DNA of 64,000 bases from assembly GCA_902530745.1 (NCBI GenBank), contig CACABO010000004.1, forward strand, positions 62,001 to 126,000, written 5' to 3'. Origin of the DNA: an uncultured Alphaproteobacteria bacterium (GTDB lineage Bacteria; Pseudomonadota; Alphaproteobacteria; HIMB59). The notes below the pieces were generated by a model, which was given only the letters and a program-made list of their open reading frames with translations, was not told where the DNA came from and did no database searches. The position numbers and the translations under genes were made by a program. Below, piece after piece: positions 34,848 through 39,380 of this stretch; position 1 is the first letter of the stretch; each line of letters begins with the position of its first letter.

Positions 34848-35629
34848 TATTGATCTTTTTTTAGTTTATCTAAACTAATCTCCTCAGAAAATTGTTCATT
34901 TAACTTTTCAGCATTATTTCTAGTTTTTATCACATCATCTTTTTTTTCGTTCTGATTTACAACTACATCAACCAAAATTGCTATCAAAAGATTTAACATT
35001 GTAATGGCACAGACAATTATAAAACTAAAAAAATAAATCCATGCCCACCAATAAATTTCTTGAAGAGGCAACATTACCTGCTCCCAAGAAGATAATGTTA
35101 ATACTTGAAATAAAGTAATCATTGAAACCCCCACATCAGACCATCTCTCGGGTATGTTATTTGAAAAGACTATTGCTCCGATAGTTGCATAAATATACAG
35201 AATTATGAAAAGCAACAAACTTACATAAAACACTCTTTTTAAAGATCCAATCAAAGACTCAATGATTAATTTTAGTTCAGGAATAATAGATATAACTCTC
35301 AAAACTCTAAACACTCTTAATAATCTCAAAAGAAGAAAACTGGAGTTGTTGGGAATTGGTATTAACGAGACAAAAACAATAAATGTGTCAAAAATATTCC
35401 AACCATTTTTAAAAAAATTTGATTTTCTAGGCTCGCCTATAAAACGAATTGAGATTTCTATTACAAAAAAAATAGTTATTAAATAATCAAGATATTTAAT
35501 GAGCTCTCTTGAGAACTCTCCTAAATTGTAAGTATTTAAACCGATAGTAAATGCATTAAATATGATGATAAATAAAACTGAGTATTGAAATAACTTGCTT
35601 TCTCGAATTTTAAAAAATGTTTGTTTCAT
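34847..35629 (-). CDS. Voltage-gated-type ion channel (six transmembrane segments)
   Basis: Single-domain cation channel of the bacterial NaChBac/Nav family. Six hydrophobic segments are visible; S4 carries regularly spaced arginines (LLRLLRVFRVLRV, about 101-113). The pore loop at 178-184 is TLSSWEQ, whereas bacterial sodium channels usually have TLESW: the ring-forming Glu is Ser and a Glu appears three positions later. The C-terminal tail is charged and coiled-coil-like (NEKKDDVIKTRNNAEKLNEQ). Length 260. Ion selectivity cannot be inferred. Followed by the coupled 58-residue membrane protein. Confidence 0.9.
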   Translation of the reverse strand: MKQTFFKIRESKLFQYSVLFIIIFNAFTIGLNTYNLGEFSRELIKYLDYLITIFFVIEISIRFIGEPRKSNFFKNGWNIFDTFIVFVSLIPIPNNSSFLLLRLLRVFRVLRVISIIPELKLIIESLIGSLKRVFYVSLLLFIILYIYATIGAIVFSNNIPERWSDVGVSMITLFQVLTLSSWEQVMLPLQEIYWWAWIYFFSFIIVCAITMLNLLIAILVDVVVNQNEKKDDVIKTRNNAEKLNEQFSEEISLDKLKKDQ

Positions 35630-35639
35630 TGTTTAAATT

Positions 35640-35993
35640 TCATTTTGAACAATTAAACCATGCTTGTAGGTTTTCTCTTGGATAATCCCAGACAATATTA
35701 ATGTTTTCGTTTAGTGGAAGAAAAATAATTATTTGTATATCTTGGTCATATAAATAGATTAGTACATCATCATTTTTTTGTATGAGGTTAAGCTCATCTG
35801 TATTACCATCAGAAAAGTTAATAGTAAGTTTATCTTTAGAACCTGATATTTTTAAAATATGGGGGCCTAAACTCTCGACATAATTACTCATATAAAAAAA
35901 TTCATCATCTGCTGGTTCACAATTATATTTTTTCCCAAAAAATCCCCAACTAAAACTAGGGATTAATAACAAAAGGGCTAAAAGGGTTTTCAT
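35640..35993 (-). CDS. Small exported protein, unrecognised
   Basis: 117 residues with an N-terminal signal peptide (MKTLLALLLLIPSFSWG) and two cysteines (Cys25 and Cys115) that could form a disulfide in the mature protein. No known domain was recognised. The first 48 coding bases match those of the 38407-39225 gene at 41 of 48 positions, and both genes start near the right end of an interval bounded by CCGTA/CCGGTA repeat pairs. It may be cargo of an older insertion. Confidence 0.75.
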   Translation of the reverse strand: MKTLLALLLLIPSFSWGFFGKKYNCEPADDEFFYMSNYVESLGPHILKISGSKDKLTINFSDGNTDELNLIQKNDDVLIYLYDQDIQIIIFLPLNENINIVWDYPRENLQAWFNCSK

Positions 35994-36063
35994 TAATTAA
36001 TGATAGCCAACATAGTCAATATTCTCAATATAGATTTCTTTTGTATGTGAAAAATAACTTTAC

Positions 36064-36082
36064 CCGGTACTCAGCCGGTACT
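36064..36082. repeat. Direct repeat pair CCGGTACT, 11-base period
   Basis: CCGGTACT at 36064-36071 and again at 36075-36082 with CAG between. It lies 55 bases before a tRNA-Arg 5' fragment, the same place occupied by CCCGTA-type pairs before the other two tRNA-Arg copies. Confidence 0.85.
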
Positions 36083-36136
36083 ACAGTTTCCAAATAATTT
36101 TATTATTTAAAAAAAGAGTATATAAATCAAGTTAAT

Positions 36137-36175
36137 GGTTCTGTGGTTAAACGGATATCACACTTGACTACGGAT
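36137..36175 (+). pseudogene. tRNA-Arg 5' half, oldest copy
   Basis: First 39 bases of the tRNA-Arg gene at 39306, up to the anticodon loop, then unrelated sequence ATCCTACGTC. One change in the D stem (GTTA in place of GTGA) breaks a base pair. The upstream AAAAAAGAGTATATAAATCA promoter-like sequence is kept. Confidence 0.9.
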
Positions 36176-36246
36176 ATCCTACGTCTTTTTAATCCATTTA
36201 TTATCAATACTTTTCTGAGGGTTTTAACAACATTTTATCTATGTTC

Positions 36247-36265
36247 CCCGTAATGTGCCCGTAAT
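36247..36265. repeat. Direct repeat pair CCCGTAAT, 11-base period (left end of element 1)
   Basis: CCCGTAAT at 36247-36254 and 36258-36265. It starts 72 bases after the tRNA fragment end, exactly as the corresponding pair does in element 2, and shares its motif with the pair at the other end of the same element. Confidence 0.88.
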
Positions 36266-36297
36266 AAAAATAAAATATTTTTTGAATTTAAACTTTT

Positions 36298-37200
36298 TTA
36301 TTTTAAAAAATTTATTGGTAATTTAACAATAGAATGGTTATGAAATTTTTTATCATTTTTATCATACATAAATAATTCATATTTTTCGATTGTTTGAGAA
36401 AATAATTTATTACATTCAGTCTTATCTAGTAACTTTTCACATTTAGACTCCGCACTCACACCATCAAAATAAATGACTCGCTGTGGGACTATTTCGGTAT
36501 TAAATACTTTTTTGTAACGTGAGATTGAAGAAGCGTATAATCCATACCTAAGGTTTAGCTCTTCGCCTTCAGATGTATTGCTAATTCCTTTGAAATCAAC
36601 TTTTAAAATGCCATCTATCCATACTCTCATGAAGCCTTTATTTTCATCTGGGTGCCAATTAGTGTTAAAAATTATTTCTGTCCATTGTCCTAAAAGGTCA
36701 TCATTGCTTTTTAAAACTATGTGAGAGTCCTCAAATGAAGTCCCGTTTCTGTTAAAAGTCAATCCTGCATGAGTGTGTTGAAACATAACTAAAACTTTAG
36801 ATGGATTATGTCTTTTCCATTGAATTAGTGACATTTTTGATGGAGCAATAGAGTTATAGTCTTTTGGAAGTAAAATATAGAACTTATACCACTTCTCCTC
36901 CTTCCACTTTTCGTGACTATAATATATTTCAGACCTCTCTCTATCAGTATCACAATCGCTTGATTTAGGCCCCTCTCCACATTCTCCGTTGTTTACTTCA
37001 AACATTATAGATTTGTCTCCAATTATTGAAATATCACTAACTGAAATAGGATTTTTTGCTTTTGGTGAATTTAAAGAATGAAACTCCTCAGGTATTATAA
37101 TTCCAAAACCATCCTGTTTTAAAACTTTTTTTATTTCATTAAAATTTGAACCAAGTACTAAACTGGGTAGAAAAATAAACAGAAGAAAGAATATTTTCAT
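36298..37200 (-). CDS. Exported polysaccharide lyase-like protein (Polysacc_lyase / PL20-type fold)
   Basis: Probable secreted enzyme acting on an acidic polysaccharide. A signal peptide (MKIFFLLFIFLPSLVLGS) is followed by a jelly-roll lyase pattern: RERSEIYY, WKEEKWYKFYILLPKDY, SLIQWKRH, WTEIIFNTNWHPDENKGFMR with VWIDG, and GLYASSISRY near the end. This layout matches glucuronan-lyase and heparin-lyase-like families; the substrate is uncertain. Length 300. It is the only gene of a 1144-bp interval between two tRNA-Arg fragments, and its ATG is 9 bases from the CCGTAATG repeat pair, so it is likely mobile cargo. Confidence 0.75.
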   Translation of the reverse strand: MKIFFLLFIFLPSLVLGSNFNEIKKVLKQDGFGIIIPEEFHSLNSPKAKNPISVSDISIIGDKSIMFEVNNGECGEGPKSSDCDTDRERSEIYYSHEKWKEEKWYKFYILLPKDYNSIAPSKMSLIQWKRHNPSKVLVMFQHTHAGLTFNRNGTSFEDSHIVLKSNDDLLGQWTEIIFNTNWHPDENKGFMRVWIDGILKVDFKGISNTSEGEELNLRYGLYASSISRYKKVFNTEIVPQRVIYFDGVSAESKCEKLLDKTECNKLFSQTIEKYELFMYDKNDKKFHNHSIVKLPINFLK

Positions 37201-37208
37201 AGTTTTGC

Positions 37209-37227
37209 CCGTAATGAGTCCGTAATG
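37209..37227. repeat. Direct repeat pair CCGTAATG, 11-base period (right end of element 1)
   Basis: CCGTAATG at 37209-37216 and 37220-37227, immediately upstream of the leftward lyase-like gene and 54 bases before the second tRNA-Arg fragment. Confidence 0.88.
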
Positions 37228-37280
37228 AACATTGTATAAAAGTTTATTATCTAAAAAAAGAGTATATAAATCAAGCTAAT

Positions 37281-37319
37281 GGTTCTGTGGTGAAACGGAT
37301 ATCACACTTGACTACGGAT
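37281..37319 (+). pseudogene. tRNA-Arg 5' half, second copy
   Basis: Identical to the first 39 bases of the intact tRNA-Arg gene, preceded by the same AAAAAAGAGTATATAAATCA sequence and followed by ATCCTATGTC, as at the first copy. Around it, GGATATC and GATATCC form inverted arms flanking the anticodon-arm sequence, a possible recombination core. Confidence 0.93.
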
Positions 37320-37390
37320 ATCCTATGTCTCTTTAATTCATTTATTATCAATACTAATCTGAGAGCTTTAACAACATTTTATCAATGATG

Positions 37391-37408
37391 CCCGTATAGA
37401 GCCCGTAT
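37391..37408. repeat. Direct repeat pair CCCGTAT, 11-base period (left end of element 2)
   Basis: CCCGTAT at 37391-37397 and 37402-37408, starting 72 bases after the tRNA fragment end, the same distance as in element 1. Confidence 0.88.
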
Positions 37409-37496
37409 GAAAAAATTGAATTTTAATTATCAACTACTCCACAGTTATTAAATTTCTGCTCTTAATTTTTTAGTTTTTGTTAAGTATGATTTAATT

Positions 37497-38111
37497 ATGA
37501 ATCTGCAGGCTAACAAAAGACAAAATATTCCTTTGCTTGTTTATGATAAGGAAAGTGTCAATTCTCAAAGAAATATGAGCTCAATCGAATTTGTAAATTA
37601 TTATAAAGAACCCTACTATCATGAGTGTGGTGGGTTAATTACTGAAATTTATATCAGAGCCTTCTGTACAGGTGAAAAATACTTAGGTATGAACTATGAC
37701 TCGAAACTTACCACTGAAGAAGAAGCTCAGGCACAGGCTCAATTAATGGACTTTCAAAACTGTGACTTTCATCTTATCAGAAGTAATTCTAAGGACGGAT
37801 TTCAAAATGCTCTTTGCTCAGCTGATGAGGGAAATTTAAAACACAATGAAGATTTATATGTTTATTCTCATCTTCATAGTGATAAGTTTGATAATTGGCT
37901 TTCAATTATCCAAAATCGCAAAGAACACAGAATTAGCTTCAATATAAAATTTAATCAAGACTCTAGAGACCTATTTCTTGGTAGTTTATTTATGAACGTA
38001 ATCGGTGATTATGATGAAGAAAAAATTTATTTTCCTATTAATCAAATAAGTTTAAAGTTGTTAGAATATGAGTTTTACCCTAAACCTGCATTATCTCACC
38101 CGACAGCTTAA
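37497..38111 (+). CDS. Hypothetical protein, cargo of element 2
   Basis: A 204-residue protein with no signal peptide, membrane segment or family I recognise. It contains several Cys and His (YYHECGG, FCTGEKY, CDFHLIR, SHLHSDKFDNW), a Gln/Ala-rich helix (EEEAQAQAQLM) and acidic stretches, suggesting a soluble, possibly metal-binding protein. Its last 44 bases overlap the next membrane-protein gene, so the two are probably translated together. It lies just inside the left repeat pair of the element. Confidence 0.75.
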   Translation: MNLQANKRQNIPLLVYDKESVNSQRNMSSIEFVNYYKEPYYHECGGLITEIYIRAFCTGEKYLGMNYDSKLTTEEEAQAQAQLMDFQNCDFHLIRSNSKDGFQNALCSADEGNLKHNEDLYVYSHLHSDKFDNWLSIIQNRKEHRISFNIKFNQDSRDLFLGSLFMNVIGDYDEEKIYFPINQISLKLLEYEFYPKPALSHPTA

Positions 38112-38406
38112 GTTTGCATTTCTATTTGTTATTTGGTCTTATTGTTTTTTAAGAATATCTCATAATACTTTATCGACTGCTTGGGTTTCTTTAACAGAGG
38201 GGTTTTTTCATCCTGATGGATTAACTAAGTGGTGGTTTTATATCACAATGATGCCAGGATGGTGGATTATCCACTTAGTCATTATTGCTTACATTCCACT
38301 TTTACTAAATCAAGACTTTCAAGCCCTATTACAAAAAAGAGAGTATAAGATAACTAATTATTCATTTTGGTTTTTATTAGCACCACTATTAATAATATTT
38401 TTCTGA
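38068..38406 (+). CDS. Small integral membrane protein, cargo of element 2
   Basis: 112 residues with about three hydrophobic segments: FAFLFVIWSYCFL near the N terminus, WWFYITMMPGWWIIHLVIIA in the middle and FWFLLAPLLIIFF at the C terminus. Rich in Trp and aromatic residues. Not recognised. Overlaps the previous gene by 44 bases and stops directly against the end of a convergent exported-protein gene. Confidence 0.7.
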   Translation: MSFTLNLHYLTRQLKFAFLFVIWSYCFLRISHNTLSTAWVSLTEGFFHPDGLTKWWFYITMMPGWWIIHLVIIAYIPLLLNQDFQALLQKREYKITNYSFWFLLAPLLIIFF

Positions 38407-39225
38407 TTATTTAGTATATAACCCAGTATTCCAATCGTAATTATAATCTTCATACTCAACTATAGATGGATTAAAATCACCAGCATTACCGTGACACAAA
38501 ATATATTTTTGTTGAAATGTGTTTTTAGCTAAAACATTAATGTCTATCTGCATAGGTTTATACTCTTCATATACAATGTCTTTCCAAACTGTTCCTTCAT
38601 TTGTGAAATATTCATTTATAAATGTCCTATACTGCATAGTTTCAGTATATGGAATATCAGTAGTCATTTTAAAATCGTTACTGTCAGTATCATAAAATCC
38701 AGATGGAGGGAAAAAACCAAGCTGAGATTGAACACTACTTCTTAGTATTCTACATATGGTTTTACTATCAAAGCTCTCTAAAAATCCAACGGAGTTAAAG
38801 TCTTCAAAAAAATTTGATTGTGAGATTTTTTTTTTCTTAATTGCATCATCGAAGTCAAAAGAAGAGAGTGTATAATCAACACTAAATACAATCAGCAGCC
38901 TATCTTTTTCATTATGAATTGATGCATATAATTCATCGAAATCCCAAACTCTAAATGATTTTTCTACAGCGGATTGTACATCTAAAGCCTCGCCAGGCAT
39001 TTTATTATCTAAATCAAAGTTCATTTTAAAATGATTTATGGAATAAATATTCATTTTTGATTTAGAGCGTTTTATTATCTCATCTATGTTAGAGTCTAAT
39101 TGATAGTTAATTTTGAATATACCAAAAGTAAGTAAATTAGTGTTTGTACCCTCTATAAAATCTTTTAGGTCTGAAGTCCAACTCAGACTAGGAATTAATA
39201 ACAATAGGACTAAAAGTTTTTTCAT
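38407..39225 (-). CDS. Exported hypothetical protein, cargo of element 2
   Basis: 272 residues with a signal peptide (MKKLLVLLLLIPSLSW) and a soluble mature part, no further membrane segment. I recognise no domain. Two Cys are present in the mature protein (CRILRSS and LCHGNAG regions). The signal-peptide DNA is close to that of the 35640-35993 gene although the mature parts are unrelated. The ATG lies 6 bases from the right repeat pair of element 2. Confidence 0.78.
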   Translation of the reverse strand: MKKLLVLLLLIPSLSWTSDLKDFIEGTNTNLLTFGIFKINYQLDSNIDEIIKRSKSKMNIYSINHFKMNFDLDNKMPGEALDVQSAVEKSFRVWDFDELYASIHNEKDRLLIVFSVDYTLSSFDFDDAIKKKKISQSNFFEDFNSVGFLESFDSKTICRILRSSVQSQLGFFPPSGFYDTDSNDFKMTTDIPYTETMQYRTFINEYFTNEGTVWKDIVYEEYKPMQIDINVLAKNTFQQKYILCHGNAGDFNPSIVEYEDYNYDWNTGLYTK

Positions 39226-39231
39226 AGTTTC

Positions 39232-39250
39232 CCCGTATACATCCCGTATA
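39232..39250. repeat. Direct repeat pair CCCGTATA, 11-base period (right end of element 2)
   Basis: CCCGTATA at 39232-39239 and 39243-39250, between the leftward exported-protein gene and the tRNA-Arg promoter, 56 bases before the tRNA. Confidence 0.88.
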
Positions 39251-39305
39251 GGATTATCAGTATGATTTTATTATTTATAAAAAGAGTATATAAATCAACT
39301 ATTAA

Positions 39306-39380
39306 GGTTCTGTGGTGAAACGGATATCACACTTGACTACGGATCAAGAATTCAGGGTTCGAATCCTTGCAGAACCGCCA
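39306..39380 (+). tRNA. tRNA-Arg (anticodon ACG)
   Basis: Complete cloverleaf: acceptor GGTTCTG / CAGAACC, D stem GTGA / TCAC, anticodon stem CTTGA / TCAAG around loop CTACGGA (anticodon ACG), T stem CAGGG / CCTTG with loop TTCGAAT, discriminator G and encoded CCA. The ACG anticodon normally needs A34 deamination by TadA to read CGN codons. TATATAAAT about 25 bases upstream is a probable -10 element. panC ends 2 bases downstream on the other strand. Confidence 0.97.

What the first reader, a model, noticed from the sequence alone, without database searches (positions are those of the whole stretch)
36064..39380. Stacked small elements inserted at tRNA-Arg, each carrying a replacement promoter and tRNA 5' half
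Three copies of the first 39 bases of tRNA-Arg(ACG) with the same upstream sequence (AAAGAGTATATAAATCA) stand in a row at 36137, 37281 and 39306; only the last continues into a full tRNA. The first two continue into a shared about 70-base sequence beginning ATCCTAYGTC. The intervals are 1144 and 2025 bp and have the same plan. The simplest reading is two successive site-specific insertions at the anticodon arm in which the incoming element supplies promoter plus 5' half and the old 5' half is left behind on the far side. No recombinase is encoded, so these would be non-autonomous. The plan is reminiscent of tRNA-linked transposons such as tycheposons of marine cyanobacteria, but much smaller.
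Basis: partly seen in the sequence, partly recalled or inferred. Interest (0 to 1): 0.95.

Follow-up and report, generated by a model that had tools for sequence, protein, structure and literature searches.

The report
Stacked integrase-less gene cassettes at tRNA-Arg
In an abundant ocean bacterium, tiny one-to-four-gene mobile cassettes without their own recombinase have stacked up inside a tRNA gene, each bringing a new promoter and new first half for that tRNA, and related species carry different cassettes at exactly the same point.

Summary
The tRNA-Arg(ACG) site has 0, 1 or 2 leftover 5' halves in 13, 10 and 8 genomes. Closely related pairs show precise additions of 1.3-4.0 kb at the end of the same 39-nt half, with the tRNA promoter replaced. 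The same cassette is 95-98% identical between genomes whose adjacent core DNA is 74-84% identical, so cassettes move between species. Integrase-encoding elements at tRNA-Ala and tRNA-Met in sister genomes share the plan. No integrase lies in the tRNA-Arg(ACG) cassettes, and the commonest repeat type lies beside no integrase in 162 genomes of the order. Best reading: minimal, integrase-less att-bounded cassettes inserted at the anticodon loop by lambda-type tyrosine integrases acting in trans, then reshuffled by homologous recombination. They work like cis-mobilizable elements, MITEs or CALINs. They are not tycheposons as defined (too small, no recombinase). New variant of a known kind.

The parts
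35640..35993 (-). Cargo gene (117 aa, secretion leader) of a third, leftmost element whose left tRNA half is lost
   Evidence: ORF; relatives carry other cargo genes at the same slot
36063..36082 (.). Right arm-like repeat pair CCCGGTACT/GCCGGTACT of the third element
   Evidence: sequence
36113..36175 (+). Old promoter region and tRNA-Arg 5' half (half 36137-36175, one substitution), left junction of element 1
36176..37319 (.). Element 1 (1144 bp): left end to right tRNA half; 98.5% identical to a unit in G029 whose core DNA is 84% identical
36176..36239 (.). Left end of element 1 (ATCCTACGTC...ACATTTTATC)
36247..36265 (.). Left arm-like repeat pair CCCGTAAT x2 of element 1
36298..37200 (-). 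Cargo of element 1: secreted polysaccharide-lyase-like protein, 300 aa (PF14099, E 1.1e-26)
37208..37226 (.). Right arm-like repeat pair CCCGTAAT/TCCGTAAT of element 1
37257..37319 (+). Promoter region and tRNA 5' half brought by element 1 (half 37281-37319), now the left junction of element 2
37320..39344 (.). Element 2 (2025 bp): left end to right tRNA half; its cargo was not found in the other genomes examined
37391..37408 (.). Left arm-like repeat pair CCCGTAT x2 of element 2
37497..38111 (+). Cargo of element 2: 204-aa protein, no family
38068..38406 (+). Cargo of element 2: 112-aa hydrophobic protein, no family
38407..39225 (-). Cargo of element 2: 272-aa protein with secretion leader, no family
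39232..39249 (.). Right arm-like repeat pair CCCGTAT x2 of element 2
39281..39297 (+). Upstream motif of the functional tRNA, brought by element 2; a divergent promoter-like match overlaps it on the minus strand
39306..39380 (+). Functional tRNA-Arg(ACG): 5' half 39306-39344 from element 2, 3' half 39345-39380 from the host

Best explanation
Each interval is a minimal integrative cassette: an attachment site split into a left and a right end around one to four cargo genes, with no integrase. Shown: precise addition at the tRNA 5' half, with shared identity ending at the anticodon loop; the incoming cassette brings a new promoter and 5' half; the old promoter and half stay behind and decay; cassettes are shared between species; most cassettes have matching arm-like repeat pairs at both ends. 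Inferred: a lambda-type tyrosine integrase, supplied in trans by another element or phage, binds the arm repeats and exchanges strands in the anticodon loop. Several integrases with different arm specificity but one core site would explain the repeat classes. Homologous recombination between shared ends then reshuffles and spreads cassettes. They probably arose from integrase-encoding elements of the same plan, with a cargo gene taking the place of the integrase gene next to the right arm.
For: Empty and occupied sites with matching flanks; 13/10/8 genomes with 0/1/2 leftover halves; cassette identity far above core identity; arm repeats match within units, p = 1e-5; arms of the CCGTAAT type occur only in these cassettes; integrase-encoding elements with the same 5'-half plan and arm layout at tRNA-Ala and tRNA-Met; a cargo block shared with an integrase-encoding island at 92.6%; leftover halves relaxed, 15/26 against 0/31 with substitutions, p = 3.5e-7.
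Against: No integrase with the matching arms was found in genus or order genomes, IMG/VR or phage records. No excised circle could be looked for. Some units have unlike or missing arms at their ends, so part of the spread is homologous recombination. The exact crossover base was not determined.
Confidence: 0.75

Rival explanations
1. Cassettes move today only by homologous recombination: the promoter plus 5' half (about 80 bp) and the left end (about 70 bp) serve as homology for exchange of array pieces taken up from other cells. Site-specific insertion happened only in the past.
For: Units with unlike arms at their two ends (G035.1, G008.1, G014.1) and the TCG/ACG hybrid half in G011. No integrase in the host genomes for this site. 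Discrete-unit transfer could also come from homology limited to the shared ends.
Against: It does not explain the origin of the attP-like ends or why arms match within units, nor the same architecture in integrase-encoding elements.
Confidence: 0.17
2. Decayed remnants: each unit is what is left of a full integrase-encoding element after deletion, immobile now and kept only for cargo.
For: Streamlined genomes; some units lack arms or a left half.
Against: The same small cassettes, with intact ends and open reading frames, recur in different species at identity far above the core, so they moved in the small form.
Confidence: 0.06
3. Host XerC/XerD move the units, as with pdif modules.
For: XerC/D-like genes are the only tyrosine recombinases found in the window's genome; pdif modules show that such a system exists.
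Against: The core is a tRNA anticodon arm and the ends have paired arm repeats, as expected for lambda-type integrases and seen beside integrase genes at tRNA-Ala and tRNA-Met. No dif site was searched for.
Confidence: 0.03
4. Simple tandem duplication of the tRNA region, or an assembly or amplification artefact.
For: Repeats in tandem; most genomes are amplified single cells.
Against: Different cargoes, empty sites and recurrence in 18 of 31 genomes including a metagenome bin.
Confidence: 0.01

Closest known systems
Cis-mobilizable elements (CIMEs), including the integrase-less ssrA islands of Dehalococcoides
   Same: Tandem elements at one RNA gene that keep attL and attR but have no integration genes (PMC5704250; PMC3146451)
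   Different: Those replace the gene's 3' end (or use its 3' repeat) and derive from larger conjugative or mobilisable islands; these are 0.65-2.5 kb, replace promoter and 5' half, and show several arm classes at one core. No active helper lies in the array.
tRNA-targeted tyrosine-integrase islands of the 5'-fragment type
   Same: tRNA restored by the element, crossover at the anticodon loop, 5' fragment left upstream (PMC4383910: 159 of 3919 islands)
   Different: No integrase and mostly under 2 kb, so Islander rules would exclude them; stacked several deep
Tycheposons of Prochlorococcus and others
   Same: Cargo elements at tRNA genes in streamlined marine bacteria (described in PMC10872708)
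   Different: Described as 4-200 kb with a tyrosine recombinase; neither holds here
Additive island fGI-2 of Methylopumilus
   Same: Repeated tRNA fragments marking an additive island of variable size (PMC10872708)
   Different: Repeats are the last 20 nt of tRNA-Lys, that is 3' fragments; att anatomy not described there
Integron cassettes without integrase (CALINs), MITEs, pdif modules
   Same: Small modules without a recombinase gene, moved in trans (PMC11389934; pdif modules)
   Different: Here the attachment site is a tRNA gene with phage-type arms; no attC, transposon ends or Xer site was identified (nor systematically searched for)

Membership tests
Tycheposon | Encodes a tyrosine recombinase | tested here: not met
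   No PF00589 protein in any ACG-locus unit
Tycheposon | Size 4-200 kb | tested here: not met
   26 bounded units of 649-2526 bp; size range from PMC10872708
Tycheposon | Bordered by a tRNA gene | tested here: met
Cis-mobilizable element (CIME) | Retains attL and attR but has no integration or transfer genes | tested here: met
   Halves and arm pairs at both ends, no integrase; no transfer gene seen among window cargo. Site function not tested
Cis-mobilizable element (CIME) | Derived from an ICE or IME by loss of those genes | tested here: inconclusive
   Same-plan integrase elements exist at other tRNA genes; none at this one
Cis-mobilizable element (CIME) | Mobilised in cis with an adjacent functional element | not testable with these tools
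   No functional element adjacent in any genome seen; mobilisation needs experiment
tRNA-targeted tyrosine-integrase element (5'-fragment type) | Displaced 5' fragment upstream of a restored tRNA | tested here: met
tRNA-targeted tyrosine-integrase element (5'-fragment type) | Own integrase gene | tested here: not met
Lambda-type attP | Arm-type repeats on both sides of a core site, recognised by the integrase | tested here: inconclusive
   Repeat layout present and matched within units; binding not tested
Integron cassette array | attC sites and an integron integrase | not tested
   No dedicated attC or integron-integrase search was run; recombinases found were Xer-like or sat on other islands

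The most novel reading that the evidence does not exclude
A tRNA-based gene-cassette system: a pool of one-to-four-gene cassettes with no recombinase of their own uses the anticodon loop of tRNA-Arg genes as a shared docking site across an abundant marine clade. Several phage-type integrases supplied in trans insert them, and the tRNA promoter is replaced with every capture. It would work like an integron whose platform is an essential tRNA gene.
Probability: 0.35. Interest if true: 0.9.

Novelty: new variant of a known kind. Interest (0 to 1): 0.72.

Why it matters
Streamlined ocean bacteria exchange genes by vehicles that are largely unknown. This gives a concrete vehicle of minimal size: att-bounded cassettes of one to four genes that an island finder such as Islander would discard because they lack an integrase and are mostly shorter than 2 kb. 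It predicts that a tRNA changes its promoter at each insertion. It also offers natural attachment-site variants with changed arm sequences on a constant core, useful for studying how integrases choose arm sites. Cargo is rich in predicted secreted proteins (three different polysaccharide-lyase-like proteins among them), so it may shape cell-surface interactions.

Tried and rejected
Searches for the ends, the tRNA half or the arms in IMG/VR: none. Phage records with the attachment region: only unrelated tRNA genes and one weak hit. Arm pattern CCGTAATN4CCGTAAT in 162 order genomes: only in these cassettes, never beside an integrase; the other arm classes were not searched genome-wide. An order-wide integrase search found one next to tRNA-Arg(ACG) (L240), but on the 3' side, so not a match. 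Other tRNA genes in two genomes: no 5' halves within about 4-5 kb upstream (less where contigs end), except a decayed one at tRNA-Ala in G029. PADLOC gave no defence family and PHROGs only one weak hit for window cargo. Relatives of the tRNA-Ala integrase and of the 272-aa cargo in IMG/VR: none; the lyase has no match in phage records.

Full report
What is there. The three copies of the tRNA-Arg(ACG) 5' half and upstream motif are at the stated places, and only the third is a full tRNA. The site lies just upstream of panC and yidC in the relatives.

Relatives. 31 genomes show the locus: 13 without a leftover half, 10 with one, 8 with two. 26 units are bounded by halves on both sides and measure 649-2526 bp. 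They fall into about nine cargo configurations (my grouping): three different polysaccharide-lyase-like proteins, cupins with or without a 134-aa protein, a PLD-like plus HNH set, a four-gene set, the window's three-gene set, and others. Related pairs show precise additions. G016 against G018: left flank 97.4% and right flank 96.3% identical, insert 1458 bp. G021 against G034: flanks 99.1% and 98.9%, insert 1293 bp. In both, the old promoter and half now run into ATCCTACG, and a new promoter and half run into the host 3' half. The 30 bases in front of the functional tRNA come in 19 versions among 31 genomes, several of them unlike one another.

Movement between species. Shared cassettes can be far more alike than neighbouring core DNA: G026.1 and G014.1 94.8% against 74.5%, and the window's lyase cassette against G029 98.5% against 84.0%. 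Leftover halves are relaxed: 15 of 26 carry substitutions against 0 of 31 functional halves, Fisher p = 3.5e-7 (related genomes are not independent).

Anatomy of the ends. About 70 bp inside each left half, and about 75 bp before each right half, most units have a pair of direct repeats with an 11-bp period. Element 1 has CCCGTAAT pairs, element 2 CCCGTAT pairs; others have CCGGTACT, GTGTGTACTGA or GTGTGTTATGA. The two ends of one unit match each other better than ends of different units (own mean 12.9 against 9.3 for 23 units; 14.2 against 8.6 for 12 chosen as non-redundant; permutation p = 1e-5). The CCGTAAT pair occurs in 17 of 162 genomes of the order, only in these cassettes, and never in the reversed control. 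This is the layout of a lambda-type attP, arm sites on both sides of a core (general knowledge of tyrosine integrases). The shared identity between leftover half and tRNA ends within about 5 nt after the anticodon loop at both tRNA-Arg genes, tRNA-Ala and tRNA-Met.

Integrase-encoding relatives. In the same genus, G068 has a 4.7-kb element at tRNA-Ala with the 5' half left upstream, an integrase (PF00589) whose start codon lies next to the right arm pair, matching arms at the left end, and small secreted-protein cargo. G032 and G022 have similar elements at tRNA-Met; in G022 the left copy is a full tRNA. In the tRNA-Arg(ACG) cassettes a cargo gene often takes the place of the integrase gene. 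A 2035-bp cargo block of cassette G028.2 is 92.6% identical to part of an integrase-encoding island at tRNA-Arg(TCT). A minus-strand promoter-like match (TTGATT, 17 nt, AATAAT or GATAAT) recurs at each of the three right ends and would read into the cargo; it is only a consensus match, and such matches are not in clear excess in the region (28 against 20.4 expected).

Homologous recombination also acts. Several units have unlike arms at their two ends, and at the tRNA-Arg(TCG) gene of G011 one half switches from TCG to ACG type inside the D arm and runs into an ACG-type left end.

Mechanism. Shown: site-precise addition, promoter and half replacement, sharing between species, attP-like ends, no integrase inside. 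Inferred: integrases in trans. The helper was not found, and circles could not be looked for. The genomes are 50-99% complete and the arm search at order level used one arm class, so a helper could have been missed.

Place among known systems. CIMEs and integrase-less ssrA islands are the nearest kind, but they are generally larger and lie at 3' ends. 5'-fragment islands are rare (159 of 3919), and a bacterial tRNA expressed from an element's promoter is described as seldom met. Islander's rules (integrase needed, at least 2 kb) would drop these. A study of HIMB59 genomic islands mentions no integrase or recombinase in its main text and tRNA once, for another island. Tycheposon criteria as reported in PMC10872708 are not met; the original tycheposon paper and Williams 2002 were not available. 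Hence: a new variant of a known kind.

Noticed in passing
window 35944-35993; L067, L068, L157, L163-L167: The DNA encoding the secretion leader (MKTLLALLLLIPSLSWG) is nearly identical in front of unrelated mature proteins; in five genomes searched with up to 3 mismatches it occurs only inside integrative elements. It may act as an exchangeable leader module.
   Followed up: partly
L223 2834-3730 (IMG/VR contig): A viral contig that looks like a T4-like marine phage encodes a lipoprotein-like homologue, 51% identical, of the element 1 lyase.
   Followed up: partly
L067 10412 (tRNA-Arg TCG locus of G011): Hybrid tRNA half: TCG-type promoter and first 21 nt, then ACG-type sequence and ACG-type left end, with unlike arms at the two ends of the unit.
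   Followed up: partly
L068 1944-5788, L069 8367-9965: The second tRNA-Arg gene (TCG) also carries stacked integrase-less units with different left ends and their own arm pairs, for example TTTTCGTATACTTTTCGTATAC.
   Followed up: partly
window 35629-35993 and the same slot in G007, G011, G014, G018: The slot next to the ion-channel gene holds at least five alternative cargo genes without a left tRNA half; its left boundary is unexplained.
   Followed up: no
window 36166-36185 and 37310-37329: The junction GACTACGGATATCCTAYGTC is an imperfect palindrome in ACG-type elements but not at the other tRNA genes; it may be chance.
   Followed up: no
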